36,765 nucleotides of DNA. Source: Ignavibacteriota bacterium (lineage in GTDB: Bacteria > Bacteroidota > Ignavibacteria > UBA10030 > UBA6906). The DNA lies in contig PMNE01000075.1 in assembly GCA_003162635.1 (NCBI GenBank), positions 1 to 36,765 of the forward strand, given 5' to 3'. How positions within the stretch are numbered: position 1 is the stretch's first letter; every line of letters begins with the position of its first letter. Positions 18,781 through 33,968 of the stretch are shown one piece after another. Both the position numbers and the translations under genes were made by a program. Below the pieces are notes generated by a model. It searched no databases, was not told the origin of the DNA, and saw nothing but the letters and a program-made list of their open reading frames with translations.

Positions 18781-20130
18781 TTACACTGTCATGGACAACC
18801 ACGAGCCGCTTTGGTACTTCCTGTAGATCAGCAGTGAATAGGCGACAATATAGACGGGGAGGGCAAGCCACGCACCCTGGATTCCCCACCCCATCCTCAC
18901 GCCAAGAATATACGACAACGGAAGAAAGACAACCCAGTGGGTCAGAACCTCGATGCGCATCACGAACACCGTCGCGCCGGCGGCCTGAAGCGCATTGGCA
19001 AGAACGATCCCCATCGCGTAGAAGATCTGCGCCGCTCCGGCAATCCGGAGGATGGGACGGGCGACATCGGCCACGCCTGCATCATTCGTGAGGATGGTGA
19101 TCACCAGATCGGGAAATGCGACAAAGATGATTCCCAGAACTGTTGTGAAATACGTCGCCAATCTCGCTGTTTCCATCCCATACCGTTTTGCCAGCCCCTT
19201 GTCCCCCGTGCCGAGACTCTGGCCGACCAACGTCTGCGCTCCCACGCCGAACCCAAAACAGGGCAGGAACGACATGAACAGGGCGGTGATCACGACCTGG
19301 CTTGCAGCTTGCTGGGAGGTACCGATCATCCCGGTAATCGCGACAAACACAAGGAATCCCAGCAAAATGAGGATATTCTGGAATGACACCGGCGCCGAGA
19401 TCTTGATGACCTGGCGCAGAACATCCTTCAGCACGCGGAATCGCGTGTAGTACCTGTATCTTCTTCGATACCGGGGGAGAAAAGTTACACTCAGGAAGAA
19501 GAGGCAACCGAGGACGTTACTGACGGCAAAGGATACTCCCGCGCCCGTCAGACCCATGGCGGGCACGCCCAGCGCCCCGAAGATGAAGATGTAATTGAAG
19601 AGAATATTGGTCAGGTTGATGATAATCGCCGAATACATGAACACTTTGGTGTGGCCGATCCCGTTAAAGAACCCCCGGTAGGAGACGACGAACAGAAAGA
19701 AAAGGAGGCCCAGAAACCGCCACTGCATATAGCCCGTTCCCGCCATTGCCACCGCCGGGTCGCTGGAGAAGAAGCTGATGACGTTGTACGAGAAGAAATA
19801 CCCGGGGATTGCGAAGGCGATACCGAGGAGGAGGGAGAGGAGGAGGGAATTGTTCAGGACGTCCCCCGCGCCGGCGTACGCGCGCTCCCCGTAGCGCCGG
19901 GCCACAATAACATGGGTTCCCGTGGCGAGACTGGAGAACACACTGGTAATCGCCCACGAGGCCAGGGAGCCAAGTCCCATCGCCGCCAGCACAACCTTTG
20001 CGTTCTCCAGCCGCCCGACCATGGCGGTCTCGACAACGGAAACGATCATTTGGAAGGAAAGTCCGGCCACTGCAGGCGTCGAAATTCTCAGAACGTCCCG
20101 CGTCAGTGGTTTGTCGGGGAGAAAACCCAT
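18781..20130 (-). CDS. MATE family efflux transporter
   Basis: A 449-residue polytopic protein with twelve expected membrane helices in two homologous halves. The N-terminal ISTPAVAGLSFQMIVSVVETAMVGRLE and the second-half ISAPVSFQNILILLGFLVFVAI repeat are characteristic of MATE (NorM/DinF-type) exporters, which expel cationic drugs or metabolites using Na+ or H+ gradients. QTLVGQSLGTGDKGLAKRYG is another family landmark. It is 65 bases downstream of the TPR gene and 21 upstream of the membrane phosphatase, so it is probably on one transcript with them. The substrate cannot be inferred. Confidence 0.93.
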   Translation of the reverse strand: MGFLPDKPLTRDVLRISTPAVAGLSFQMIVSVVETAMVGRLENAKVVLAAMGLGSLASWAITSVFSSLATGTHVIVARRYGERAYAGAGDVLNNSLLLSLLLGIAFAIPGYFFSYNVISFFSSDPAVAMAGTGYMQWRFLGLLFFLFVVSYRGFFNGIGHTKVFMYSAIIINLTNILFNYIFIFGALGVPAMGLTGAGVSFAVSNVLGCLFFLSVTFLPRYRRRYRYYTRFRVLKDVLRQVIKISAPVSFQNILILLGFLVFVAITGMIGTSQQAASQVVITALFMSFLPCFGFGVGAQTLVGQSLGTGDKGLAKRYGMETARLATYFTTVLGIIFVAFPDLVITILTNDAGVADVARPILRIAGAAQIFYAMGIVLANALQAAGATVFVMRIEVLTHWVVFLPLSYILGVRMGWGIQGAWLALPVYIVAYSLLIYRKYQSGSWLSMTV

Positions 20131-20885: not shown

Positions 20886-20933
20886 GTGCGGGCATGTCCT
20901 GAAATGATCATGAATGGAGTTTTCGGCGTGTCG

Positions 20934-21007
<74 letters not shown>

Positions 21008-21136: not shown

Positions 21137-22843
21137 TCAGAACGAACTGTCCATCATCGCCGTCACATTTTCGCGGCCGCTCCCCCCTCTCCCGAGGAAC
21201 GAGGGTATCCAGAGAATCAGCAGGATCAGAAGCATCAAACACACGGCGTACGCCGACGCCGCACCGATATTGAACTGCCGAAGCTGCGCCAGAATCTCCA
21301 CGGACACGGGTCGGCTTGCGTAGGTGTACAGCATGATCGAGGAAACAAACTCACCGAGCGAAGCGATCGCAACAAGGACCGCGCCCGAAAGGATCGCGGG
21401 AGCAATCGCAGGGAGAAGGACGGACCGGAACCTTTTCCACGCCGATGCTCCCAAGCCATCCGCGGCATCAAGCAGCGAACCGTCCATGGTCTCCAGCGAC
21501 GCCGTCACCGATCGAACAACCACCGGGTACTCCCGCATGATATAGGCAAAAGGGAGAATCCAAAACGTTCCGACAAGTCCCATCCCCCCGGTCCACCAGC
21601 GCGGAATGTTGAACGAGACGATCAATGCGATCGCCACGACCGTCCCGGGCACCGCATACGGCAGGGTGAGGATGATGTTCGCCGCTTTTCCCCAGAAACG
21701 ACCTTGCGCGCGAGACGCAAGCACCGCCGCAGAAACACCGAACAGGATCGAGCCGATGACCGCAATCCCCGCGCACAAGAGACTGTTGAGCAGGGGCTCC
21801 AGCATTTTTCGCTCACCCAACAGCGAGAGATAATTCTGCGTGGCATAGCGGTCGGGCAGGAGCTGCGTCGTCCAGGACCCTTCCCGAACGAAGGAGAGAA
21901 GCACGATCATGGCCACCGGCAGAAGCTCCGCAAGGAGAAGCAGGAACGTCCCGCCCACCAGGAGACGCCGGAGAATCGGCGGCACCGGGAGAACGCCCCG
22001 CCGTGCCACGCCCTTGCCGCCGCGCGCGGTTTGCGGTGTTCCGCCGACCGACATCATGACGGCGTAGAGACCCAGGGAAACGAACGTCAGGAGAACCGAC
22101 TGCGCAGCGGCGAGATTGACGTCGCCGTTCAGTTTCGTCTGAAAAATCTGCAGCGTGAGGAATCGCTTCTCCCCCGCGAACAGCAACGGTGCCGTAAAGG
22201 ACGCCATGCTCGACATGCACGTGAGGGCGGCCGATGCGAGGAGGGCAGGGCGCAACTCGGGGAGGATCACCTTTCGGAATGTGCGCCACCCTCTGCTCCC
22301 GAGCCCGGCGGCGGCGTCGATGAGCGCGCCATCGATGTTGCGCAGGGCGGCGGCACAAAACAAATACGTGTAGACGTGAAACGAGTAGACATGCACGATC
22401 ACAACGCCTGGTATCCCTTCAAGAGCAAGGACAGGGTTCGCCGTGTGGAGGATGCCCTGCAAAATCCGTGGAAGAAGTCCCGAGCTTCCAAACACGAACC
22501 TGAACGCGATGACTCCGACCAGGGGAGGAAGAGCAATGGGAAGTATCGCCAGACGCGCAACGACTGCTTTCCCGGGGAATTCCACCTGCGTGACGACAAA
22601 GGCGAGGCACAGACCGAGAAGGCCGGAAAAGACCACCGACAGGACGGCAACGAAGATGGAATTCAGGATCGCCTCGCTATTCGCACCGTTGGCCGGATCG
22701 AACAACGAAGCGTATTGGTGGAATGAAAAGACACCCCCTGCCTTCAGACTTTCCCCCGCCATCATGGCGAGGGGAAAGGCAACGTACATCATGAAGGCAA
22801 ACACCAGGAGCGTGAACGCCGCCAACGGACCTGCGCGCTTCAC
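21137..22843 (-). CDS. FbpB-type ABC permease with two fused permease domains
   Basis: A 568-residue protein with about twelve membrane helices in two tandem BinDeptr (type I importer) domains. Each half has an EAA-like coupling loop: IDAAAGLGSRGWRTFRKVILPEL (near residues 175-200) and LDAADGLGASAWKRFRSVLLPAI (near 455-480). This fused layout is typical of the ferric iron/AEP/thiamine-type importers. I chose the GTG at 22843 (KRAGPLAAFTLLVFAF follows) because it forms a GTGA overlap with the ATPase stop and the hydrophobic N-terminus starts there. An in-frame extension to 22990 would overlap the ATPase by 150 bases. GGGGGGAG precedes it closely. It is the last gene of the operon. Confidence 0.9.
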   Translation of the reverse strand: MKRAGPLAAFTLLVFAFMMYVAFPLAMMAGESLKAGGVFSFHQYASLFDPANGANSEAILNSIFVAVLSVVFSGLLGLCLAFVVTQVEFPGKAVVARLAILPIALPPLVGVIAFRFVFGSSGLLPRILQGILHTANPVLALEGIPGVVIVHVYSFHVYTYLFCAAALRNIDGALIDAAAGLGSRGWRTFRKVILPELRPALLASAALTCMSSMASFTAPLLFAGEKRFLTLQIFQTKLNGDVNLAAAQSVLLTFVSLGLYAVMMSVGGTPQTARGGKGVARRGVLPVPPILRRLLVGGTFLLLLAELLPVAMIVLLSFVREGSWTTQLLPDRYATQNYLSLLGERKMLEPLLNSLLCAGIAVIGSILFGVSAAVLASRAQGRFWGKAANIILTLPYAVPGTVVAIALIVSFNIPRWWTGGMGLVGTFWILPFAYIMREYPVVVRSVTASLETMDGSLLDAADGLGASAWKRFRSVLLPAIAPAILSGAVLVAIASLGEFVSSIMLYTYASRPVSVEILAQLRQFNIGAASAYAVCLMLLILLILWIPSFLGRGGSGRENVTAMMDSSF

Positions 22844-23892
22844 TCTCCCCCCGGAAAGACGAACGCCTTTTCCCAATCGATCGTGAACCAAATCGTCATG
22901 CCCGGACGCAAAGAGAGAGCCCCCGACAAACTCGGGACGATCACGCGAAGGGAAACCCCTTGTGACGCAATGCGGAGCGTGGTCATCCACCCCATATACT
23001 CCACCGCGTCCACCCGCGCTGGTACGCTTCCCGGGATCCCTTCACCCGCCAGGAGGATCCCCTCCGGTTTGAGGGCGAGCGTTGCTCTCCCCGGCGGCCG
23101 ATAATGGCTGGGGGGCAGCACGATGCGGAAGGCACCCTGTTGGAAGATCCCCTCGGCACTGAGGAGTCCTTCGAGAAGATTGGCCCCGCCAAGGAACCCG
23201 GCAACAAACGGATCCTCGGGAGCTTCATAAAGCTCTCTCGGCGTCCCCACCTGCCGAACGACGCCATCCCTCATCACGGCGATCCGGTCGGCAAGCGTCA
23301 TTCCCTCTCCCTGATCGTGCGTGACATAGACGGTGGTGACGCCGCTCTCCCTCTGGAGGGTCTTGATCTCCTCGCGCGTGCTCGTCCGCAATGCGGCATC
23401 CAGATTGCTCAGCGGCTCATCGAACAGAAGGACCTGCGGCCGCAGAACAAGTGCGCGTGCCACCGCGACTCTCTGCTGTTCACCTCCGCTGAGCGTCGGT
23501 ACGGGATCGGCTGTCTTCTGCGTCATGTGGACCGCATCCAAAGCGACTTTCACCCGGTCCCGGACTTCGCGGTCCCCCATGTGCCGACTCTCCAAACCGA
23601 AGGCAACGTTCTCGAACACCGTCATCTGTGGAAAGAGGGCGTAGTTCTGAAACACCATCCCCATCTCCCTGTCGCGCGGATGGCAATGTGTGATGTCGCG
23701 TCCCCCGAGGACGATGGATCCGCTGTCCGCCTTTTCATAGCCTGCGATAAGCCGAAGGAGAGTGGTCTTGCCGCATCCGCTCGGGCCGAGGACGGCAAAA
23801 AACTCGCCGGAGGCAATGTCCAGATCGACCCCGCACACCGCCGCTCTCCCGCGGAATTGTTTTGTCACCTGGTGGAGCGAAAGTGTTGCCAC
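22840..23892 (-). CDS. FbpC/PotA-type ABC importer ATPase
   Basis: A 350-residue importer ATPase. Walker A is GPSGCGKTT (36-44), Q-loop VFQNYALFPQMTV, signature LSGGEQQRVAVARAL, Walker B VLLFDEPLSNLD and H-loop VTHDQGE. A C-terminal TOBE-like domain (about 240-350) is present. Overall it fits the FbpC/PotA branch that powers ferric, spermidine/putrescine, phosphonate or sugar-phosphate importers. It starts 3 bases after the binding-protein gene and overlaps the permease gene by four bases, so the three form one transporter. Confidence 0.93.
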   Translation of the reverse strand: MATLSLHQVTKQFRGRAAVCGVDLDIASGEFFAVLGPSGCGKTTLLRLIAGYEKADSGSIVLGGRDITHCHPRDREMGMVFQNYALFPQMTVFENVAFGLESRHMGDREVRDRVKVALDAVHMTQKTADPVPTLSGGEQQRVAVARALVLRPQVLLFDEPLSNLDAALRTSTREEIKTLQRESGVTTVYVTHDQGEGMTLADRIAVMRDGVVRQVGTPRELYEAPEDPFVAGFLGGANLLEGLLSAEGIFQQGAFRIVLPPSHYRPPGRATLALKPEGILLAGEGIPGSVPARVDAVEYMGWMTTLRIASQGVSLRVIVPSLSGALSLRPGMTIWFTIDWEKAFVFPGGE

Positions 23893-23895
23893 CGC

Positions 23896-24927
23896 TCACT
23901 CTCCTTGCTCGTCGTGACCGCGTCCCCGCACTCGTTCATCCCACAGAGACATCCATCTCTTCTCGTTCGCAGCGAGGGTGTCATAGTCAACCGGCAAGGG
24001 GCGAAGATGAAGTCCGGCAATCCAGGCGGGGAGATCCTGCGCGGGAATGTCCGCACGCGTCGGGATTCGGGCGAACTCCCTGGCCTGGCGCAGCAGGCTC
24101 TCGCGGGATGTGACAAATTCAAAAAATCTCCTTGCTGCTTCCGGGTGTTTCGTCCCCTTCACAAGAGCGATCCCATCCGTCATGAGGGGAGTCCCGGAGG
24201 CCGGAACAACGTAGCCGAAGGGATAACCGTTCGTTTGGATCTGGATCATGACGTCCGAGAGATCCCAGACCGTCACAACTCCTTCCTCCCGCGCAATCGC
24301 CAGGTAGAGCTGCGTAGGGTCTGCCGCGTACGATTTCGTGTTCCTGTCGAGGCGCCGGAGCCACGACAGTCCCGCTTCCTCGTCTCCTCCCCGTCCAATC
24401 TCCCTGAGGATCATCGCGCACAAAATCACGCGCATCGTCCCGGACGCGAGCGGGGAACGGATGATGACCTTTCCTTTCCATGCCGGCGCGAGGAGATCAT
24501 CCCAATCCTTCGGGGCATCCGCGGCGGGAACCCGCGCTGTATTGTACACGATCACTTCCGGCGTGAGGAACGTCCCTTCCCAATAGCCATGGCGGCTCTT
24601 CTCCCCGACCGCGACAGCAGAATCCCAATCCGGGACGTACCGTTCGAGAAGTCCTTCGCGTTCCGCCTGGTCAAACGCCGTCATGGGCGCTCCCCACCAG
24701 ACATCCGCCTGGGGATTCTCCTTTTCCGTTCTGATCCTGTCCAAAACGTCCTGCGAACCCATATCCAGCCATTGCACTTCCTCCCCGGGGTACCGCTCCT
24801 CGTAGGCGTGCGCGAACGCGCTCAACATTTCCTTCCCGTGCGGAGAGTAGACCACGACGGGAGAGCGGCCGGAACCCGAGCATCCCGCGACGACAAGCAG
24901 AACGGCGGCGGCACTCGCCCCTCTCAT
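23896..24927 (-). CDS. FbpA-like periplasmic substrate-binding lipoprotein
   Basis: A 343-residue binding protein with a good lipoprotein signal: RGASAAAVLLVVAGC, Cys16 as lipid anchor. The mature part (VVVYSPHGKEMLSAFAHAYEERYPG onward, DVWWGAPMTAFDQAEREGLLE, SPLASGTMRVIL) is of the FbpA/AfuA/type 2 periplasmic family. The adjacent Tyr-Tyr pair that holds iron in FbpA proteins is not seen in the expected C-terminal part, so an organic ligand is possible. The start at 24927 overlaps the PIG-L stop as ATGA and lies right at the signal peptide; a longer frame to 25056 lies inside the PIG-L gene and is not conserved-looking. Confidence 0.88.
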   Translation of the reverse strand: MRGASAAAVLLVVAGCSGSGRSPVVVYSPHGKEMLSAFAHAYEERYPGEEVQWLDMGSQDVLDRIRTEKENPQADVWWGAPMTAFDQAEREGLLERYVPDWDSAVAVGEKSRHGYWEGTFLTPEVIVYNTARVPAADAPKDWDDLLAPAWKGKVIIRSPLASGTMRVILCAMILREIGRGGDEEAGLSWLRRLDRNTKSYAADPTQLYLAIAREEGVVTVWDLSDVMIQIQTNGYPFGYVVPASGTPLMTDGIALVKGTKHPEAARRFFEFVTSRESLLRQAREFARIPTRADIPAQDLPAWIAGLHLRPLPVDYDTLAANEKRWMSLWDERVRGRGHDEQGE

Positions 24928-27326
24928 GGAACCTTCTTTCGGCAGGCGGAGTAGGAAAGCATGTTTGCAAAGCAGCGATATGCCCCCGCGTTGCCCTCCT
25001 TCAATTGCCGGTACCATACGTACGTCGTATAGATGTACGTTCCGCTGCCATACCACGCTGCAAGATATCCGGTCGTAAGGGGAGACTCGTCCGGATCGGC
25101 GCAGGAAAGGATGCGTTCATAGGCCTCGGGGACATCCGCGGGCATATAGAGAGCCCGTTCCTGCGTCCAATCCATCCAGTCCTGTGCGCCGATCCTGTTC
25201 GGCGATTGCATGAGCGGGTGGGCAGGCAGCAGGATGGTGATCGGTGATTCCTCGACGCACGCCCGCTGCCGGGAGATTCGGAAGGGGTAGGGCGCATACG
25301 CGGGCTTCCACTCCTGATCCTTCTGATACATCACCACCAGATTTCCCCCGTTCCTGACATAGTCGAGGAGGCGCCCGTTCTGCGCCCGGAGCGCATCGCG
25401 GACAAGATACGCCCGGATGTCGATGACGATCGTCGAGTAATGCGAGAGATCTTCCGACACGATGTCCTCATCCGACAGGACGTGCTCCTTCACCCCCAAC
25501 GTCGCCGCCGCCTCCTCCATGGTGGTATCGTAGCTCTTGATGATACCGATGTTGATCCCGGGCGAGCAGGCGGCGTCGATGATATTCACCGTCACTCGCG
25601 TGGAAGCAAGTTCGGTCCGGACATCGATGGGGTATGCCCCGGGAGCCGCATCAGGAGGAGGGGTGACCACGAGGCGGCCCTGGTCCGTGCTGTCCTCCTG
25701 GTCGATGACGAACTGGGCGTTTTCACCGCTCCAACCGGCCGGCGCCTTGATCCCAACCCTGCCTGCCGTCTTATGGGGCATGTGGTTTGTTACGAGATAC
25801 GCGATCGCAAATCCTTCCCTGAGACGCGAGCGGAGGAGGGAAACTGTTTGCGGTTCCACATCGATCTCCTGACGCGGAGCAACTTCATAGGAGGGTTCGA
25901 CACCCAGGCGGAGGCGCCTGCCGCCGATCATCATGGAAACGCGCCCGAAGATCCGCTCGCGCTTTTCCAGCGAACGATATTGTGTCACTGCCTTCGGAAG
26001 CGTCAGCTGTGCATTGCCTCCGACGGTGAGGGTGAAGACCCGTTGGTCGAAGTGCGACGACATCAGGGGAGCATCTCCGGACTCCTCCTGTATCGACCAG
26101 CCCTCCGGAACGCTGAATCCCCAGCGGACATTGCTCACCGCCAGCCGGGGCGACGTTACGGTGAGATCGCATGCCACACGCTGTTGCGCGACGACGGTCG
26201 TATCGCGGAGGCGGAAATCCACCTTGACGCCCGTGATGGTGGCAACCAACCGCGATCCCTCCTCCCTCCAGTGGTCGATCATCCTCCGGGCAAGGGGAGA
26301 CAGAGGAGTTCCCGCCAGGAGGGAATCGGTCCGGTCGATGACGTCGCAGACGATCCCCACAATCGAATCGCCCGGCATCGCGGGCCGCAGGAGGTCCAGT
26401 TCCTTGCGCAAAGGAGCAAGCGGGGCAACCGAGGGATCGCGGAACGGATCGATCCCCGAAAGGAAGGTGGTGCTGTCCTGTTCGTACTGGCTGTTCGACC
26501 GCATGAGCTTATAGAAACTCTTCCCCCGCGTGAACGAACGCAAATCGGCCCGATCCATTCCTTGCGTCTTGTGCATCCGGAGGGCCCGCGAGGCGATATC
26601 AAGGTATGTGCTGCCGGCAGAGGAATCGAATTCTCCGATCTGATTTGAAACATCGGCAATCGGCTCTCCCCTTCCGAAGACGCGGAAGAAGAGTTTCCGC
26701 GGTTGCCAGAGCGCGATGCCGGATTCCTTCAATTGTTCCGGAAAGCAGTTCGAATCCGCAGCGGCATCGAATGCTGCAAGGAGAGTCACCGCAACGGCCT
26801 GGTGATGCCCGTGTCCGTCGATCGTGTTGTGGTTCGTAAAGAGCACGTCGGGCTTGTTCTTGCGAATGGCATACACAAGGCGGCGGAGGACTTCGTTCTG
26901 TCCACCCCATTTGTGGAAAGCTTCCGTTGCCGTCTTGGAGTAGCCAAAATCGAGGAAGTTGAGGAACTGGACTTCCGCACCGAGGATCTTGCCCGCAGCC
27001 CGCGTCTCTTCGGAACGAAGAACGCCAAGCTTTTCATACAGCTCGGGCCCCGTTTCGTTCTGCCCGCCCTCGCCCCTCGTGAACAACACCGAGTATGTCT
27101 TCGCGCCGTACTTCATCCGATAATACGCCAGGGAAGATCCGTCCTCGTCATCGGGATGCGCGGAGACATCCATCACCACGAAGTCGTTGGAGACATCACG
27201 GACTTCCCGGCTGAATATCTTTCCTTCGTCTTCCTGGGCGAGAAGCAGGGAAAACGACAGTACCGCAAGAAAAGGGAGGGCGGCAAATTGCCGCAAGAGG
27301 GACCGGTCAACGTTAGGACGAGACAT
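24924..27326 (-). CDS. Large secreted PIG-L deacetylase with C-terminal extra domains
   Basis: An 800-residue protein. The N-terminus has a signal peptide (hydrophobic about 14-30, SFSLLLAQ). The PIG-L/LmbE zinc-dependent N-deacetylase domain is at about 50-290: zinc motif AHPDDED at 56-62 with His57 and Asp60, and IDGHGHHQAV around 169-178 supplying further His ligands. A middle region (about 370-590) looks like beta-sandwich, NEW3/alpha-galactosidase-associated domains. The C-terminal part (about 600-800; IGIIKSYDTTMEEAAATLGV, then VRNGGNLVVMYQKD) looks like a GATase-like fold. This tripartite layout is seen in FCB PIG-L proteins but its substrate is unknown; N-acetylated glycan or glycolipid is the family guess. 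It overlaps TsaC at its start and the binding-protein gene at its end. Confidence 0.88.
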   Translation of the reverse strand: MSRPNVDRSLLRQFAALPFLAVLSFSLLLAQEDEGKIFSREVRDVSNDFVVMDVSAHPDDEDGSSLAYYRMKYGAKTYSVLFTRGEGGQNETGPELYEKLGVLRSEETRAAGKILGAEVQFLNFLDFGYSKTATEAFHKWGGQNEVLRRLVYAIRKNKPDVLFTNHNTIDGHGHHQAVAVTLLAAFDAAADSNCFPEQLKESGIALWQPRKLFFRVFGRGEPIADVSNQIGEFDSSAGSTYLDIASRALRMHKTQGMDRADLRSFTRGKSFYKLMRSNSQYEQDSTTFLSGIDPFRDPSVAPLAPLRKELDLLRPAMPGDSIVGIVCDVIDRTDSLLAGTPLSPLARRMIDHWREEGSRLVATITGVKVDFRLRDTTVVAQQRVACDLTVTSPRLAVSNVRWGFSVPEGWSIQEESGDAPLMSSHFDQRVFTLTVGGNAQLTLPKAVTQYRSLEKRERIFGRVSMMIGGRRLRLGVEPSYEVAPRQEIDVEPQTVSLLRSRLREGFAIAYLVTNHMPHKTAGRVGIKAPAGWSGENAQFVIDQEDSTDQGRLVVTPPPDAAPGAYPIDVRTELASTRVTVNIIDAACSPGINIGIIKSYDTTMEEAAATLGVKEHVLSDEDIVSEDLSHYSTIVIDIRAYLVRDALRAQNGRLLDYVRNGGNLVVMYQKDQEWKPAYAPYPFRISRQRACVEESPITILLPAHPLMQSPNRIGAQDWMDWTQERALYMPADVPEAYERILSCADPDESPLTTGYLAAWYGSGTYIYTTYVWYRQLKEGNAGAYRCFANMLSYSACRKKVP

Positions 27327-27957
27327 CGGGAATGACTGTTATGATGTGATCAAGAGGGAGAGCCCCCGCGCGCACGAGCCGTGGGGGAGAGAGCGAAACG
27401 TCGACGACTGTCGACGGAAGACTGGCGGGGAGAATCCCCGCATCCAGAAACAGGTCAATCCCGGGTCCAAGGGAGCATTGCATTTCTCCGACTGTTGCTG
27501 GGGTCCGCTGACCGCTCACGTTGGCGCTGGTGGAGGTGATCGGGCACCCGCAGAATGCCGCCAGGCGGAGACAGAGAGGATGTGCGGGAATCCTGATGCC
27601 GATCGTCCCTGTCCCATGTGTCAATGCCGCCGGCACGTGCGGCGCAGCGGCAAAGATCAACGTCAGCGGTCCCGGCCAGAATGCCTCCATGAGGCGCTCC
27701 CCCGCCGCCGATACCTCCGCCGTCAGCTCCCTCGCGGCGCTGAGAGAATCAACAATGACGAGGATCGGTTTGTTCTCGGCGCGATGCTTGATGGCCGGTA
27801 TGCGCCCCACAGCGGCTGCATTCAACCCATCGGCACCGATCCCATACACCGTGTCGGTGGGATAGACGATCACTCCGCCTTCGCGGATTGCAGCAGCGGC
27901 AATCCTGAGGACTCCTTCGTCAGGTTCCGCCGCGTCAATGGTACGGCTGATCGACAT
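27313..27957 (-). CDS. tsaC: L-threonylcarbamoyladenylate synthase, TsaC/YrdC domain
   Basis: A 214-residue single-domain protein that makes threonylcarbamoyl-AMP from Thr, bicarbonate and ATP for the t6A37 tRNA modification. YPTDTVYGIGAD (about 32-43), AIKHRAENKPILVIV (KxR...NKP signature), the GTIGIRIPAHP strand and STSANVSG are all present. There is no Sua5 C-terminal domain, so it is the short TsaC form. It starts 17 bases after the heptosyltransferase and overlaps the PIG-L start by 14 bases. Confidence 0.95.
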   Translation of the reverse strand: MSISRTIDAAEPDEGVLRIAAAAIREGGVIVYPTDTVYGIGADGLNAAAVGRIPAIKHRAENKPILVIVDSLSAARELTAEVSAAGERLMEAFWPGPLTLIFAAAPHVPAALTHGTGTIGIRIPAHPLCLRLAAFCGCPITSTSANVSGQRTPATVGEMQCSLGPGIDLFLDAGILPASLPSTVVDVSLSPPRLVRAGALPLDHIITVIPDVSS

Positions 27958-27974
27958 CCTGTGCTGTCCGATGT

Positions 27975-29060
27975 TCAGTGGGAGCGGACGCCCGCCTTTC
28001 GTGCGTCCCGGGTTTTCCCGACGATGGCCATGACTTCATTCCTCACGCGAACGGCCGATATCGCGCGCATGCACTCCAACGTGCCGATGGGACATTTCTT
28101 CCCGCCGTGGATGGCGCAAGGCCGGCACAGAAGTCCGCTTGTCTCCACAACCCGATCCCGCGGCCCGGCGGGGGCAAAGCCGAAGCCGGGAACCGTAGGT
28201 CCAAAGATTGCAACAACGGGAGTCCTCATCGCGACGCCAAGATGTGCAGGGGCGCTATCATTTGTTATTAACGCCGCACAGCGTCCAAGGAGTTCTGCGG
28301 ACTGCAGAATGGTGAGGGCCCCCGCAGCATGGACGATCCGGGTCGTCCCCGCTTCCTTCGCGATGGAAGCGCAGAGCTCACGATCCCCTTCTCCTCCCAC
28401 GAGGGCGACTGCGATCCCCTCTCCCGACAGCAGGCGGAGTAGTTCGACGTATCTTTCCTTCGGCCATCTCTTTGTCGCCCAGACCGAACCGGGCGCAATG
28501 GCAACCATCTTCATTTCCTCTTTCGCGGACGACGGGGGGGTGCGTCCCTTCAGGAGCTCATCGACGGCGATCCTGTCCTCTGCGGAAGGATACAGCAGAG
28601 GCAACGGCCGCTTCCCCCATTTCAGTTCCAGCGGCTTGCCCAGGGAGAGATTCCGCATGATCTCGTGCCGATCCCGATCATAAGGGACGGTGGTGGTCAT
28701 GAGATGCCTCCCCATGCCTCGCCGGAACCCAATGCGGATGGGGATGCCGGCAGCCCGGCACACAAACGCACTGCGGAACGATCGATGCGGTATGAGCGCG
28801 ATATCGAACTTCTCGGCACGCATGAGCCCGATCATCGTCACCATACCCCCAAACCCCCGCAAGCTGCCGCGCTTGTCGTATTCGAGCACCTTCGACACAG
28901 CCGGGTGGCCGCGAAGCATCGACGCCGCGGCGGGAATCGTTACGGGAATGATCGCAGCGGCGGGGAATTTCTCGTGGAGGGCCTGAATCAACGGCAGGGT
29001 CAGAACGACGTCTCCCAGGAACGCTGTTTGGAACACTGCGATTTTCTTCGGCTCATTCAT
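27975..29060 (-). CDS. GT9 heptosyltransferase family protein (WaaF-like)
   Basis: A 361-residue GT-B enzyme. The N-terminal KIAVFQTAFLGDVVLTLPLI corresponds to the heptosyltransferase acceptor domain, GSVWATKRWPKERY to the ADP-heptose site and NDSAPAHLGVAMRTPVVAIFGPT to the conserved C-terminal motif. A Cys-rich tail (LLCRPCAIHGGKKCPIGTLECM) is also typical. The family adds heptose to LPS inner core at the cytosolic membrane face. The ATG at 29060 is chosen since it forms an ATGA overlap with the acyltransferase stop; the longer frame to 29150 overlaps that gene. Specific acceptor (Hep I, II or other) is open. Confidence 0.92.
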   Translation of the reverse strand: MNEPKKIAVFQTAFLGDVVLTLPLIQALHEKFPAAAIIPVTIPAAASMLRGHPAVSKVLEYDKRGSLRGFGGMVTMIGLMRAEKFDIALIPHRSFRSAFVCRAAGIPIRIGFRRGMGRHLMTTTVPYDRDRHEIMRNLSLGKPLELKWGKRPLPLLYPSAEDRIAVDELLKGRTPPSSAKEEMKMVAIAPGSVWATKRWPKERYVELLRLLSGEGIAVALVGGEGDRELCASIAKEAGTTRIVHAAGALTILQSAELLGRCAALITNDSAPAHLGVAMRTPVVAIFGPTVPGFGFAPAGPRDRVVETSGLLCRPCAIHGGKKCPIGTLECMRAISAVRVRNEVMAIVGKTRDARKAGVRSH

Positions 29061-30001
29061 GCCACTCGTCCGGGGGTGGTCGCACCCCCTTGGCTCATTT
29101 GCTCCCGATAATATGCCGTGTGCTTCCAGCGTTTGTGCATCCACAACCAATGATCGGGGTAACGACGGATGTATCGCTCGAGCAGGGCTGTGTGCCTGCG
29201 GGTCAGTTCCAGAATCTTCTCCTCGGCCGTGCCGACGAGGTGTGACCGGTCGAGTTCTTCGAACTCCACTTTGTACGTCCCATCGCGCTGGCGGAGAATG
29301 AAGTACATGACGATAGGTATATCGTTCTTCAGACTGAACATGGCGGGGCCGCGATGCGTCGCAGCGGGTCTTCCGAAAAACTCCACAAACACTCCCTCCT
29401 TCGGGCCGCTCTGGTCCCCGAGCATCGCCACAATACGGCCTTCCCTGGTAAGCCGAATGACTTCACGGACCGATTGCCGCATCGTCACTGTGCCGTTGCC
29501 GAACCGGTTCCTGTTCGCGTGAATGGCCCTGTCGATATAGGGGTTACGCTGCGGCTGTGCGATCGCGACAACCGGGTTGCCGAGTTGGAGACCGAGGGAC
29601 GTTGCGGTCAATTCCCAGGAACCGAAATGTCCCGAAAGAAGAATGAGTCCCTTTCCGCGGGCCAGCGCATGGAGGGGAACGTCCCTGTTGACAGGCAGGA
29701 ATATCCTCTTCAACTCCGCTTCATCCGCGCCGCCAGCCCAGAGCATCTCGACGACCGCCCGCGCATATCCCCGGTAGGTCCCCGCCGCAATACGGGAAAG
29801 CTCCGCTTCCCCTTTTTCCGGAAACGCATGCCGCAGGTTATCGAGCGTAATCGCCCGCCGGAATCTCAGCACCCGATATGCCAGGGTACCGAGGATGTCT
29901 CCCAGCTTCCCGGCTGACCGAAAAGAGATGTGTTGAGCAACCCTGTTGACGGGAGCGAAGAAGGCGTACTCGACTATGTTTCTCAGTTTGCGGAAAAGCA
30001 T
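29057..30001 (-). CDS. LpxL/HtrB-type lipid A acyltransferase
   Basis: A 314-residue protein of the lysophospholipid acyltransferase family. The H-x4-E catalytic motif is GHFGSWE (about 124-130), with ARGKGLILLS before it and GDQSGPKEGVFVEFFGRPA after it, both family landmarks. The first 40 residues suggest membrane association. It probably adds a secondary acyl chain to lipid A, fitting the heptosyltransferase next to it. The ATG at 30001 directly follows a TTG-N20-TAGATTGC promoter with no ribosome binding site, so the transcript may be leaderless. Confidence 0.9.
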   Translation of the reverse strand: MLFRKLRNIVEYAFFAPVNRVAQHISFRSAGKLGDILGTLAYRVLRFRRAITLDNLRHAFPEKGEAELSRIAAGTYRGYARAVVEMLWAGGADEAELKRIFLPVNRDVPLHALARGKGLILLSGHFGSWELTATSLGLQLGNPVVAIAQPQRNPYIDRAIHANRNRFGNGTVTMRQSVREVIRLTREGRIVAMLGDQSGPKEGVFVEFFGRPAATHRGPAMFSLKNDIPIVMYFILRQRDGTYKVEFEELDRSHLVGTAEEKILELTRRHTALLERYIRRYPDHWLWMHKRWKHTAYYREQMSQGGATTPGRVA

Positions 30002-30005
30002 CGTA

Positions 30006-30036
30006 GCAATCTACGAAACGGGGAGTGAACCTGCAA
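30006..30036 (-). promoter_or_regulatory. Promoter of the lpxL-heptosyltransferase-tsaC operon, TTG-N20-TAGATTGC
   Basis: On the minus strand TTG at 30036-30034 is followed by 20 bases and TAGATTGC (30013-30006). The last two bases of the -7 box deviate from TAnnTTTG. The ATG at 30001 begins only four bases after the box, so transcription would start at or near the start codon. Confidence 0.5.
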
Positions 30037-30097
30037 CGACAAGAACCACTGCGTCCCGTCAGGACGCCACCAAACTTGTTCGGCGCGGCATCCCCCA

Positions 30098-30133
30098 AGA
30101 AAAAAAAGACCCCGGGGAAACTCCACGGGGCCC
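30098..30133 (-). terminator. Intrinsic terminator of the GWxTD operon
   Basis: On the minus strand GGCCCCG pairs with CGGGGTC (with one G-T), followed by a T/C mismatch, two more pairs and a short loop. A run of eight T comes directly after the stem (A run at 30100-30107 on the plus strand). It lies about 25 bases after the GWxTD stop and separates this operon from the lpxL promoter. Confidence 0.9.
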
Positions 30134-30155
30134 TTGGACAACGACAAGCCCTGTT

Positions 30156-31523
30156 TCAGTTCGTTTGGATGAAACGCTGCCAGTTTTCATCCTGAAGCTC
30201 GCCCCGAAGGGTGGAATGGACAAGATCGTATTCGCCCCCCTGGTTCTTCTGGACAAAAACGAAGATCGCTCCCCCCTGAAGACTGTGGTAGGTCCAGATT
30301 TCGTACGCCTTGCTGTCCGATTCATTCGGATGGCGTTCAAAATCGTCCGGTGTGCCATAGGTGATGTACACTCGACCGCGGTCCGACCTGTATCCTTCGC
30401 GACCCATCACCCCGAAATTCGCATTGGCATACGTCACGCGTGTCATGTATTCATCCCGTGTTCCCGCGGGACGCTTCCGCCACAAATCGCTCAAAAGTTT
30501 CCTCTTCGCGTCCGCCCCCGACAGTTGCTCGTACTGCGACTTCTCGGGCTTCGTCATTTCATACTTGGACCAGCGGAATTCGCGATCGAGTTCCGATTCC
30601 GGCATTCCCGTATAGATCGCAAGAGGAACCGAGGACGCGGAGGCGAGCAGTGTTGAATCAATCCCCATGGAAGGATTATAGACGAAGAATCTCCTCGCAC
30701 TTTGCGTCAGGACGGCACTTGTTGTGTCCAGGAGAGCCACGATGAGCGTATATGTCCCGGTTTTCAGACTATCCGTATCGAACTGATCGACAAGCACCGC
30801 GGATTCACCGGTCCGTTTGCGAGTCCGGTCCTTGCTCAGCATCGGCTTCCCGACGGCATCAAAGATCGATGTGCGCATCTTGTAGTTGCTCCGGTCGTCC
30901 CCCAGCAGAAGACCATAGGCCTCCACGTAGATGAGTCCCTGTTGGCGCTCACCGTACAACCCGCCGATATTCGGGATCACGTCCAGCGTATTCTTGGTAA
31001 ACGGGGTCTTCTGCTTCGATGGCCGGATGGCCGACGCAAACTCGATGTCGCTCAGCGTGATTTTGTCGGTTGGCACGGGACGCATGGGAAATCGCAGAGT
31101 CGTGCTGTCCATTCTCTGAGGCGCATGACGATCCCGCACCACGGCCTTTAGCACGTAGTCGCCCCGGGGGAGCTGGACGGGGTAGACCCCCACGAGATTC
31201 ATACCGGTTTTGATCTCCGAAGTGTCCCGCACAGAATGAGGGACCAGCCACCGGTCGGCGAGGACAAGCGAGTCGCGCATCCGAAGCAGGAAGGTGACAT
31301 CTGCGGCACAGTTGAAGCCGGCAGAATCCGGCATATAGCTGAGGCCGGCCTGGCCGATGGAATAATGGATCTCGACGGTGCCGGTCGTATCATCCGGCCC
31401 GCGAAAACGTGCTGCATCCACACCGAGACGCAGCGGCTGCTTTGGAGGTACGACCTGTCCCCGCCCTTCCGCAGCGACGGAAAGGAGAAGGAGAAGCATG
31501 GGAACGACGAATGGGTTCTTCAC
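30156..31523 (-). CDS. GWxTD-domain protein with degenerate GWxTD motif
   Basis: A 455-residue secreted or periplasmic protein with a signal peptide (KNPFVVPMLLLLLSVAAEGRGQ). Residues about 30-330 are predicted beta-rich. The C-terminal GWxTD domain begins near 374. The motif that names the family reads GYRSD (377-381) instead of GWxTD, but the rest (RGRVYITYGTPDD, then YEIWTYHSLQGGAIFVFV) is standard. GWxTD proteins are found in FCB-type bacteria and have no firm function. It is the last gene of the response regulator-YjbQ-GWxTD run and is followed by a clear terminator. Confidence 0.9.
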   Translation of the reverse strand: MKNPFVVPMLLLLLSVAAEGRGQVVPPKQPLRLGVDAARFRGPDDTTGTVEIHYSIGQAGLSYMPDSAGFNCAADVTFLLRMRDSLVLADRWLVPHSVRDTSEIKTGMNLVGVYPVQLPRGDYVLKAVVRDRHAPQRMDSTTLRFPMRPVPTDKITLSDIEFASAIRPSKQKTPFTKNTLDVIPNIGGLYGERQQGLIYVEAYGLLLGDDRSNYKMRTSIFDAVGKPMLSKDRTRKRTGESAVLVDQFDTDSLKTGTYTLIVALLDTTSAVLTQSARRFFVYNPSMGIDSTLLASASSVPLAIYTGMPESELDREFRWSKYEMTKPEKSQYEQLSGADAKRKLLSDLWRKRPAGTRDEYMTRVTYANANFGVMGREGYRSDRGRVYITYGTPDDFERHPNESDSKAYEIWTYHSLQGGAIFVFVQKNQGGEYDLVHSTLRGELQDENWQRFIQTN

Positions 31524-32696: not shown

Positions 32697-33968
32697 ATGA
32701 GCTCTCCATCCCCTCATCTCTCCGTCCGGAGAGAACACCCATTCCAGGTTTCCATTCTTCTGGTTTGCCTTACCTTCCTCCTGTGCATATTTATCTTGAG
32801 CCCGGGACAAGGGGGAACGACCCCGGCAGGGACGGATACTCCCGGCGCCCGGCAGCTCTACTCGCTCTTTGCCCGCGTGCAAGGAATCTCCGATTCTCTC
32901 GAGCGCCGCAAGGCGGTCGCAGATTTCCTCCGGGCGACCACGCCGACCGGCTGTCCGTTGATCGACGATTCGACGGTGACGTTCGTGTATGAGGGGCCCG
33001 GGACCAGCGTCGCCGTCGCGGGAGACATGAACGACTGGAATCCCTCCACGGGGGAGATGAAGCGACTTCAGGGAACCCGGTTCTTCTACCGGACATTTTC
33101 CATCGATCCGGCAGGCCGTTCGGAGTACAAACTCGTCGTGGATGCCTCCTGGATTCTCGACCCGCGCAATCCAAGGACGGTGATGGGCGGATTAGGGTTG
33201 AATTCAGAGCTCCGCATGCCGGCCTATGTCCCTCCTCCCTCCGTCGTCCCTGCACCCGGCATCTTCCCCGGCCGGATCGATACGCTTCTCTTCAGAAGCG
33301 TCCTGCTCGCCTGCGCACATCCGGCCATGGTGTACACCCCGGCCTCGTACGCCGCATCGGCCGATACACTCCCCGTCCTGTTCGTTATGGACGGGGGGGA
33401 ATATCTGGCCCTCACGGAGATGAGAGGGACTCTCGATTATTTGATCGGAGCGAAGAGGATCACTCCTGTGGTTGTTGTCTTCCTTGACCCGCGGACGGAT
33501 ATCCGTTCCCCCGAGTCAAGCAGGAGGATGGCAGAGTATGCCCTGAACGACACATTCATCCAGGCCGTCGTCTCCGAACTCCGGCCCATGATCGGCTCCC
33601 GCTACAGAATCGCCATGGATGCAGCCCGCACAGCCATCATGGGCGTCTCCATGGGCGGACTCATCGCCACGTATGCCGGGTTGACGCGCCCCGATATTTT
33701 CGGACTCTGTGCAGCACAATCTCCTTCCTATTGGTGGGAGAAAAGACGCCTCGTTCGATTCATCGCCATCGCGAGGACGATGCCCCTCAAGATGTACATC
33801 GACACCGGCACCCTTTACGACGCACAGGAGGAGGCAAGAGCGGCTCGGGACGCATTCCTTGCACGGCATGCGGCTCTCCACTACGAGGAACACCCTGAAG
33901 GGCATAACTGGTTAAACTGGCGCTCTCGCATTCCGTCAATACTCTCATACTTCTGGGGCACTCAATGA
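32697..33968 (+). CDS. Secreted or membrane-anchored esterase with CBM48/AMPK-like N-terminal domain
   Basis: A 423-residue protein. An N-terminal hydrophobic segment (about 17-36) acts as signal peptide or anchor. Residues about 85-170 form a CBM48/AMPK-glycogen-binding-like early-set domain (VAVAGDMNDWNPSTGEMKRL, then YKLVVDASWILDPRNP). The rest is an alpha/beta-hydrolase of the Fes/esterase-D type: nucleophile Ser318 in GVSMGG, His403 in EGHNW, and an acidic residue probably around YIDTGTLYD. The glucan-binding domain suggests a role on alpha-glucan or an acylated glycan; siderophore esterase is an alternative. The stop overlaps the next gene's start (ATGA), so the two are coupled. Confidence 0.85.
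   Translation: MSSPSPHLSVRREHPFQVSILLVCLTFLLCIFILSPGQGGTTPAGTDTPGARQLYSLFARVQGISDSLERRKAVADFLRATTPTGCPLIDDSTVTFVYEGPGTSVAVAGDMNDWNPSTGEMKRLQGTRFFYRTFSIDPAGRSEYKLVVDASWILDPRNPRTVMGGLGLNSELRMPAYVPPPSVVPAPGIFPGRIDTLLFRSVLLACAHPAMVYTPASYAASADTLPVLFVMDGGEYLALTEMRGTLDYLIGAKRITPVVVVFLDPRTDIRSPESSRRMAEYALNDTFIQAVVSELRPMIGSRYRIAMDAARTAIMGVSMGGLIATYAGLTRPDIFGLCAAQSPSYWWEKRRLVRFIAIARTMPLKMYIDTGTLYDAQEEARAARDAFLARHAALHYEEHPEGHNWLNWRSRIPSILSYFWGTQ

What the first reader, a model, noticed from the sequence alone, without database searches (positions are those of the whole stretch)
21137..27326. PIG-L deacetylase fused in operon to an FbpABC-like importer of unknown cargo
The PIG-L stop overlaps the start of the binding-protein gene, which in turn is coupled to ATPase and fused permease. 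The binding protein lacks the adjacent tyrosines that hold iron in FbpA. A deacetylase that trims an N-acetylated glycan or glycolipid together with an importer of the product would be a complete salvage module.
Basis: partly seen in the sequence, partly recalled or inferred. Interest (0 to 1): 0.6.

Follow-up and report, generated by a model that had tools for sequence, protein, structure and literature searches.

The report
Amidase plus importer, possibly bacillithiol salvage
A secreted deacetylase-type enzyme and a nutrient importer sit side by side here and, it turns out, in many unrelated bacteria; partner genes found elsewhere suggest that they retrieve the sugar-malate core of bacillithiol, the thiol that many bacteria use in place of glutathione, but this has not been tested in the laboratory.

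Summary
PIG-L (24924-27326, minus strand) overlaps the binding-protein gene by ATGA; the ATPase and a fused permease follow, 3 nt apart and overlapping. The binding protein has no Tyr pair (0 of 67 relatives). The linkage is not unique: all 14 of 21 family genomes with this binding protein have PIG-L beside it, and so do 60 of 80 loci from a public genome scan (Ignavibacteria, Bacteroidota, KSB1, Acidobacteria, Gemmatimonadota, Bacillota), in several gene orders. Elsewhere in the phylum related PIG-Ls pair with a Na+:solute symporter; in Alphaproteobacteria and Deinococcus with a sugar-type ABC importer. In Bacillota, Alphaproteobacteria, Deinococcus and two further loci a lyase of the argininosuccinate-lyase superfamily joins, often with a ROK regulator and a sugar kinase or NagB. 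Amidase + fumarate-releasing lyase + amino-sugar genes best fit glucosamine-malate, i.e. bacillithiol or its conjugates. I infer that PIG-L cuts the amide outside and the importer takes up GlcN-malate, for reuse by BshC (this genome) or breakdown (lyase-bearing genomes). Coupling is well supported; the cargo is inference (about 0.5). The window's own family has no dedicated lyase, ROK or kinase, and nothing has been assayed.

The parts
24924..27326 (-). Long PIG-L/LmbE-superfamily amidohydrolase, 800 aa, signal-type N-terminus; HPDDE (57-61) and His172/His175 kept; NEW3-type region 519-570; conserved C-terminal domain about 590-800
23896..24927 (-). Solute-binding lipoprotein (343 aa, Cys16), AfuA/PhnS/FbpA fold, no Tyr pair; ATGA overlap with PIG-L
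22840..23892 (-). ABC ATPase (350 aa) with TOBE_2 domain; nearest NCBIfam model PhnT2, below its cut-off
21137..22843 (-). Fused double permease (568 aa from GTG), two BPD_transp_1 domains; GTGA overlap with ATPase
27313..27957 (-). TsaC/Sua5 L-threonylcarbamoyladenylate synthase; overlaps the PIG-L start by 14 nt; next to PIG-L in most family genomes; probably co-transcribed, not thought to be part of the function
20933..21007 (-). tRNA-Arg(CCG) downstream of the permease; marks the end of the gene run

Best explanation
A salvage module made of an extracytoplasmic PIG-L amidase and an ABC importer. Shown: gene order and overlaps, intact metal and catalytic motifs, a signal-type N-terminus on PIG-L, no iron tyrosines, conserved pairing across phyla with three kinds of importer, and partner lyase, ROK, NagB or sugar-kinase genes in other lineages. 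Inferred: PIG-L hydrolyses the amide at C2 of a glucosamine-malate compound outside the cytoplasm (bacillithiol, a bacillithiol S-conjugate or disulfide, or GlcNAc-malate). The binding protein captures the released GlcN-malate, and the importer brings it in. In this genome, which has BshC, it would be reused for bacillithiol. In lineages with the operon lyase, the malate is eliminated as fumarate and the glucosamine is phosphorylated and deaminated. My estimates: functional coupling of PIG-L and importer about 0.9; cargo an anionic amino-sugar derivative about 0.7; specifically bacillithiol-derived GlcN-malate about 0.5.
For: (1) Linkage kept: 14 of 14 binding-protein-bearing family genomes; 60 of 80 loci of the genome scan, in the orders PIGL-SBP-ATP-PERM, SBP-ATP-PERM-PIGL, and PIGL divergent from ROK-SBP-ATP-PERM-lyase. 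Where PIG-L was not seen adjacent, a PIG-L match occurs elsewhere in 13 of 18 genomes, 10 of them at E below 1e-30. (2) Transporter swap: SSF symporter homologue in 24 of 40 regions around long PIG-Ls of the phylum; all 26 SSF-labelled PIG-Ls fall in one fork of 34 with support 100; sugar-type ABC importer beside PIG-L in Alphaproteobacteria and Deinococcus. (3) Lyase of the argininosuccinate-lyase superfamily in 26 of 27 Bacillota loci and in L090 and L092. It keeps SSIMPQKRNP, THxQ and SRND; ArgH's EDxH, SRNDQ and YNRDxQEDK are replaced in 31 of 31 rows (one locus twice) against 9 ArgH rows. Of nine plasmid lyases opened, the seven in transporter operons share the ED-x-FF and HN[TV]PF-x-D pattern; the two haloarchaeal ones do not. 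(4) Amino-sugar partners: ROK (NagC/Mlc/glucokinase-like) and NagB in L132, PfkB-type kinases and a NagK-like kinase in L173, a creatininase-family amidohydrolase in two operons without PIG-L. (5) Characterised LmbE enzymes act on N-acylglucosamine cores, and GlcN-malate is the BshB/Bca product (PMC4101496, passages). (6) Pocket: AfuA anion residues S37/T150 map to S58 (64 of 67) and T164 (61 of 67, 5 more Ser); AfuA D206 maps to D225 (67 of 67). (7) BshC in 54 of 59 binding-protein-bearing genomes and in 16 of 16 in Acidobacteriota, against 118 of 197 overall, hypergeometric p 1.8e-4 uncorrected for relatedness.
Against: No assay, no ligand-bound structure. The window's family has only ArgH- and PurB/fumarase-like lyases and no module ROK or kinase beside the importer. 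BshC is near-universal in the phylum sample (166 of 168), so co-occurrence there is uninformative, and I noticed BshC within 10 kb of a long PIG-L only once (G353). In the Bacillota sample 3 of 6 binding-protein genomes have no BshC (p 0.16); Tepidibacillus (L132/G058) has importer, lyase and NagB but neither BshC nor PIG-L by these searches. Alphaproteobacterial and deinococcal PIG-Ls start without a signal sequence, so the compartment varies. The window PIG-L scores far below the Mca, BshB and MshB cut-offs, and the HPDH motif of the genome's own BshB-like protein is HG[HN]H in most long PIG-Ls. The lyase reaction on GlcN-malate is my prediction. Some SBP loci have other neighbours (KSB1: M1-peptidase-like gene; divergent Bacillota SBPs: PP2C-like gene).
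Confidence: 0.5

Rival explanations
1. Same module logic, different cargo: another amide-bearing, succinyl- or aspartyl-substituted amino sugar, or an aminopolycarboxylate of the EDDS type, which the lyase splits to fumarate.
For: The second-best solved family of the operon lyase by sequence (6rx8/6g3d series, deposited as argininosuccinate lyase; I recall it as EDDS lyase). Module relatives occur in genomes without a BshC hit.
Against: LmbE enzymes characterised so far need an N-acylglucosamine core, and ROK, NagB and sugar kinases accompany the lyase. I know of no abundant GlcN compound with a succinyl ether other than GlcN-malate (recalled).
Confidence: 0.25
2. Importer of a phosphorylated or phosphonate compound (AfuABC-, P5PABC- or PhnSTUV-like); PIG-L deacetylates an N-acetyl sugar phosphate or related compound.
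For: Closest solved folds are P5PA and AfuA; closest NCBIfam models are 2-aminoethylphosphonate transporters; the phosphate-binding Ser/Gly/Thr are kept.
Against: Below every PhnS/T/U equivalog cut-off. AfuA sugar contacts H205 and E229 fall on Pro/Ser224 and a hydrophobic residue at 249. It does not explain the lyase.
Confidence: 0.15
3. Envelope glycolipid remodelling: PIG-L trims a lipid A-type or other surface glycolipid made by the neighbouring LpxL-like acyltransferase and GT9 heptosyltransferase, and the importer recovers the product.
For: The LpxL-GT9-TsaC-PIGL order is conserved in the family.
Against: The same PIG-L-importer pair occurs in monoderm Bacillota and in Acidobacteria and Gemmatimonadota without LpxL-like neighbours.
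Confidence: 0.07
4. The co-localisation has no functional meaning: a ferric importer next to an unrelated deacetylase.
For: FbpA-type fold; ABC importers are common.
Against: Linkage persists through rearrangements across phyla and through transporter replacement; no Tyr pair.
Confidence: 0.03

Closest known systems
AfuABC hexose-phosphate importer (AfuA, PDB 4r72-4r75; PMC4546632, passages read)
   Same: Best VIA-align match (Z 33.2, 306 residues, 24% identity); anion-binding Ser/Gly/Thr and Asp206 equivalents kept
   Different: His205 and Glu229, essential for G6P binding, are not kept; AfuABC has no PIG-L or lyase partner that I know of
P5PA pyridoxal-phosphate binding protein (6wce; PMC8427247, passages read)
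   Same: Top sequence and Foldseek hit; phosphate held by Ser/Gly/Thr at helix starts, as in AfuA
   Different: About 24% identity; the His that P5PA and AfuA use for the ring lies in the stretch that reads LPDV/LSDV here; the paper restricts P5PA to Pasteurellaceae
PhnSTUV 2-aminoethylphosphonate importers (NCBIfam)
   Same: Best-scoring named models for binding protein, ATPase and permease
   Different: All below the curated cut-offs
FbpABC ferric importers
   Same: Fold and overall gene set; a fused permease is a known variant (recalled)
   Different: Adjacent iron tyrosines absent in 67 of 67
Mca/Bca conjugate amidases and MshB/BshB deacetylases (PMC4101496, passages read)
   Same: LmbE superfamily, HPDD motif; Mca is the best NCBIfam model for the window PIG-L
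   Different: Window PIG-L carries an N-terminal signal-type sequence (Mca and Bca are cytoplasmic, recalled); 500-600 extra residues; below all cut-offs; HG[HN]H for HPDH
GisABCD-Ggt glutathione import system of Staphylococcus aureus (PMC10355420, abstract and passages read)
   Same: Operon of an importer for a low-molecular-weight thiol and an amide-cleaving enzyme whose compartment varies between species
   Different: Unrelated enzyme family; glutathione, not bacillithiol
Argininosuccinate lyase / EDDS-lyase-type enzymes (partner lyase in other genomes)
   Same: Superfamily catalytic loop and fumarate-side motifs
   Different: EDxH, SRNDQ and YNRDxQEDK of ArgH replaced; absent as a dedicated gene from the window's family

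Membership tests
PIG-L / LmbE superfamily (PF02585) | Pfam match over cut-off; HXDD plus distal His metal/catalytic motif | tested here: met
   68.3 bits against 28.2; H57-P-D59-D60-E and H172/H175 invariant among 16 aligned
Mca / BshB1 / MshB equivalogs | NCBIfam curated cut-offs | tested here: not met
   Mca 46.9 of 277, BshB1 27 of 182.5, MshB 24.7 of 224 bits
Mca / Bca | Hydrolysis of thiol S-conjugates | not testable with these tools
   needs enzyme assay
FbpA ferric-binding proteins | Adjacent iron-binding tyrosines | tested here: not met
   No YY at the aligned place in 67 of 67; D225 invariant
AfuA hexose-phosphate binding proteins | His205, Asp206 and Glu229 (the paper's motif) | tested here: not met
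   Aligned residues are Pro (62 of 67; Ser in window), Asp (67 of 67) and mostly Leu/Val/Ile
AfuA hexose-phosphate binding proteins | Anion site: Ser37 and Thr150 equivalents | tested here: met
   S58 in 64 of 67; T164 in 61 of 67, Ser in 5
PhnS / PhnT / PhnU 2-aminoethylphosphonate importer | NCBIfam curated cut-offs | tested here: not met
   Binding protein 106 of 310, ATPase 351.5 of 457.7, permease 162.4 of 247 bits
Binding-protein-dependent ABC importer | Binding lipoprotein, ATPase and two permease domains in one gene run | tested here: met
Bacillithiol salvage (predicted) | Host makes bacillithiol (BshC present) | tested here: met
   G000:C110:44721-45827, 360.6 bits; not diagnostic, as 166 of 168 genomes in the phylum sample have it
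Bacillithiol catabolism (predicted) | Dedicated fumarate-releasing lyase in the window's genome | tested here: not met
   Only two matches, at 30% (ArgH-like) and 25% identity to the operon lyase

The most novel reading that the evidence does not exclude
A dedicated, widely exchanged pathway for taking up and recycling or degrading bacillithiol exists in bacteria. A PIG-L amidase frees GlcN-malate, one of three unrelated importer types brings it (or the intact thiol) in, and where present a new subfamily of the argininosuccinate-lyase superfamily cuts the malate ether to fumarate plus glucosamine. The window holds the salvage-only form.
Probability: 0.45. Interest if true: 0.8.

Novelty: new variant of a known kind. 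Interest (0 to 1): 0.6.

Why it matters
Bacillithiol and its derivatives are described as the most widespread low-molecular-weight thiols in bacteria (PMC6282198, abstract and passages), and I found no paper describing its uptake or breakdown (searches, in an open-licence library only). If the reading is right, one gene neighbourhood supplies the amidase, the importer and a new lyase reaction, explains why genes that resemble ferric or 2-aminoethylphosphonate importers and a spare argininosuccinate lyase sit together in Bacilli, and shows that one bacterium's thiol is another's nutrient. Even if the cargo is different, a conserved three-transporter module around an orphan PIG-L is a defined, testable unknown.

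Tried and rejected
Iron: rejected on the missing Tyr pair. Hexose phosphate as in AfuA: two of three sugar contacts lost. A bsh cluster next to PIG-L: looked for in the phylum sample; I noticed only G353, where BshC is about 7 kb from PIG-L (the BshC match list was cut by the tool, so others may be missed). Co-occurrence with BshC as proof: useless in the phylum of the window (166 of 168), weak in Bacillota (3 of 6, p 0.16; 3 of 4 at E 1e-100 or better, p 0.047), better in Acidobacteriota (16 of 16, p 1.8e-4), none corrected for relatedness. A lyase in the window's own family: not found. First structure model of the binding protein (15 sequences) was poor, pLDDT 62, and was not used; the second (67 sequences) reached 93.6. 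Solved relatives of the whole PIG-L protein by sequence: none at E 0.01. Promoter and terminator scan: one promoter-like site, fewer than in shuffles, and terminator-like sites not clearly above shuffles (16 against mean 10.3, sd 3.7); not used. Papers that looked relevant but were not: B. pumilus bacillithiol and Alicyclobacillus LmbE, passages only. Two paper searches gave nothing of use.

Rows dropped or limits: of the 240 relatives found by the genome scan the tool kept the best 80. In one search I gave 46 of the 80 loci plus 20 family genomes; one locus (L109) was not held, so 65 genomes were searched, 6 of them without the binding protein. Alignment A2 used 67 sequences; near-identical loci were left out. 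In the tree, PIG-Ls shorter than 600 aa were left out, and three SSF labels (L068, L069, L191) were set by hand. Of 47 plasmid records with a related lyase I opened nine.


Full report
What is in the window. On the minus strand, PIG-L (24924-27326, 800 aa), a binding lipoprotein (23896-24927), an ABC ATPase (22840-23892) and a fused double permease (21137-22843) follow each other with an ATGA overlap, a 3-nt gap and a GTGA overlap. PIG-L in turn overlaps the end of a TsaC/Sua5 gene by 14 nt. Upstream lie a GT9 glycosyltransferase, an LpxL-like acyltransferase and a GWxTD protein; downstream a tRNA-Arg, a TPR protein, a MATE exporter and a PP2C/SpoIIE-type regulator. The window is a whole contig (C90) of a 3.1-Mb, 98%-complete genome; its named relatives are mostly Ignavibacteria MAGs.

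Linkage in the family. Of 21 genomes, 14 have the binding protein, and in all 14 a PIG-L orthologue (about 42-70% identity over the aligned pieces) is adjacent, in G018 across a contig break. In three of the seven genomes without it (G014, G015, G020) a roughly 40%-identical PIG-L is followed by a Na+:solute symporter-like gene; Pfam was run on the one in G015 only (SSF).

Linkage elsewhere. A scan of one genome per species with a profile of the binding protein found 240 relatives; the best 80 were kept. They come from Ignavibacteria and Chlorobi, Bacteroidota, KSB1, Calditrichota, Acidobacteria, Gemmatimonadota and Bacillota. PIG-L lies within 6 kb in 60 of 80, in 43 of the 50 with 5 kb or more on both sides, and in 25 of 27 Bacillota loci. 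Orders differ: PIGL-SBP-ATP-PERM (Ignavibacteria, Gemmatimonadota), SBP-ATP-PERM-PIGL (Acidobacteria), and PIGL divergent from ROK-SBP-ATP-PERM-lyase (most Bacillota). In 18 genomes where no PIG-L was seen beside the SBP, a PIG-L match was found elsewhere in 13, 10 of them below 1e-30; one of these (G030) has PIG-L next to a permease homologue on another contig.

The transporter is exchangeable. In a 168-genome sample of the phylum, 67 have a long PIG-L. I read 40 of these neighbourhoods: 24 carry a symporter homologue beside or close to PIG-L, one (L192) the ABC importer. A tree of 100 long PIG-Ls puts all 26 SSF-labelled ones in one fork of 34 (support 100), while the ABC-linked ones lie in other places: Ignavibacteria with KSB1, Bacillota, Acidobacteria, Gemmatimonadota (the root is not known). 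A search of plasmid records with the Bacillota operon lyase found 47 records. Four opened alphaproteobacterial ones have PIG-L, ROK, a sugar-type binding protein, two sugar permeases, the lyase, a UgpC-type ATPase and a PfkB/ribokinase-type kinase. Deinococcus wulumuqiensis has ROK, lyase, a long and a short PIG-L, sugar importer and kinase; D. deserti the same without the long PIG-L. Bosea has importer and lyase without PIG-L. Two haloarchaeal hits have no such module.

The lyase. It belongs to the fumarase/argininosuccinate-lyase superfamily (PF00206, ASL_C2; over the TIGR00838 argH cut-off). It is present in 26 of 27 Bacillota loci (the miss is a 5-kb contig) and in L090 and L092. All 31 operon rows (one locus twice) keep SSIMPQKRNP, TH-x-Q and SRND but replace ArgH's EDxH by EDLFF, SRNDQ by SRND[MIL] and the YNRDxQEDK stretch by a HNTPFGD stretch; the 9 ArgH rows compared do not. 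The seven plasmid lyases from transporter operons share ED-x-FF and HN[TV]PF-x-D. I read this as: the succinyl side of the site is kept, the arginine side is not. Which ArgH residues hold arginine is recalled, not from a call. The next-best solved family is the 6rx8/6g3d series, which I recall as EDDS lyase.

Why GlcN-malate. LmbE enzymes characterised so far act on N-acetyl- or N-acylglucosamine cores (PMC4101496, passages). The lyase superfamily releases fumarate from succinyl groups (general knowledge). ROK regulators related to NagC and Mlc, NagB, a NagK-like kinase and PfkB-type kinases accompany the importer or lyase. In L174 and L175 a creatininase-family amidohydrolase is present and no PIG-L was seen. 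A compound with an acyl-glucosamine and a succinyl ether is bacillithiol (Cys-GlcN-malate) or GlcNAc-malate. BshC occurs in 54 of 59 binding-protein-bearing genomes searched, and in 16 of 16 in Acidobacteriota where 118 of 197 have it. Against this, BshC is nearly universal in the window's phylum (166 of 168), and 3 of 6 binding-protein genomes in the Bacillota sample have no BshC hit. That argues against recycling in those hosts and leaves scavenging.

The binding protein. Its model (pLDDT 93.6) matches AfuA best (Z 33.2, 2.5 A over 306 residues, 24% identity); by sequence and Foldseek P5PA and AfuA lead. By the alignment, read by eye, AfuA's phosphate contacts Ser37, Ser148, Gly149 and Thr150 correspond to S58, S162, G163 and T164; His205, Asp206 and Glu229 to 224 (Ser here, Pro in 62 of 67), D225 (67 of 67) and a mostly hydrophobic 249. 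R64, R157, R287 and R291 are invariant in 67 of 67. The site thus looks suited to an anion but not to iron or glucose-6-phosphate. No docking was done.

The enzyme. The window PIG-L keeps HPDDE and the distal His; the HPDH of the genome's own BshB-like protein (G000:C108) is HG[HN]H in most long PIG-Ls. The long PIG-Ls of Ignavibacteria, Bacteroidota, Bacillota and most others start with a signal-type sequence as judged by eye; those of Alphaproteobacteria and D. wulumuqiensis do not. The amide may thus be cut before or after import, as described for Ggt in different bacteria (PMC10355420, passages).

Verdict. 'Salvage module' is supported, iron is not, and glycan or glycolipid is not favoured. 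The best single reading is retrieval of GlcN-malate from bacillithiol. In this genome it would be salvage, since BshC is present and no dedicated lyase was found. I found nothing in print on uptake or breakdown of bacillithiol in the searches, which cover open-licence papers only.

Noticed in passing
window 27313-31523: Run of GWxTD protein, LpxL-like acyltransferase, GT9 heptosyltransferase and TsaC conserved upstream of PIG-L in the family; TsaC is also next to PIG-L in two Bacteroidetes loci (L082, L083).
   Followed up: partly
window 18781-20130: A MATE exporter gene sits between the TPR and PP2C genes only in the window and genus g5; absent at that place in the other family genomes read.
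   Followed up: no
L106, L111 (upstream of SBP): KSB1 loci with this binding protein have an M1-peptidase-like secreted protein of about 770 aa where PIG-L would be.
   Followed up: partly
L176, L177: Divergent relatives of the importer in Bacillota (32-34% identity) come with a PP2C-like protein; probably a different cargo.
   Followed up: no
L174, L175: A creatininase-family amidohydrolase lies between permease and lyase in SBP-ATP-PERM-lyase operons.
   Followed up: partly
L113, L117, L131: In Thermochlorobacter/Chlorobiales contigs the binding-protein gene stands without adjacent ATPase or permease; a 550-660 aa PIG-L lies elsewhere in those genomes.
   Followed up: no
L090: Record labelled Acidimicrobiia, but its PIG-L groups with that of G030, the genome of an Acidobacteria record; GlmU-like and GlmS-like genes (by eye) precede its lyase, so the MAG label may be wrong.
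   Followed up: no
window 33965-36763: Large glycosidase-like ORF cut by the contig end; proteins at the corresponding place in L053 and L055 match GDE_C. It lies next to an esterase-like gene (32697-33968).
   Followed up: no
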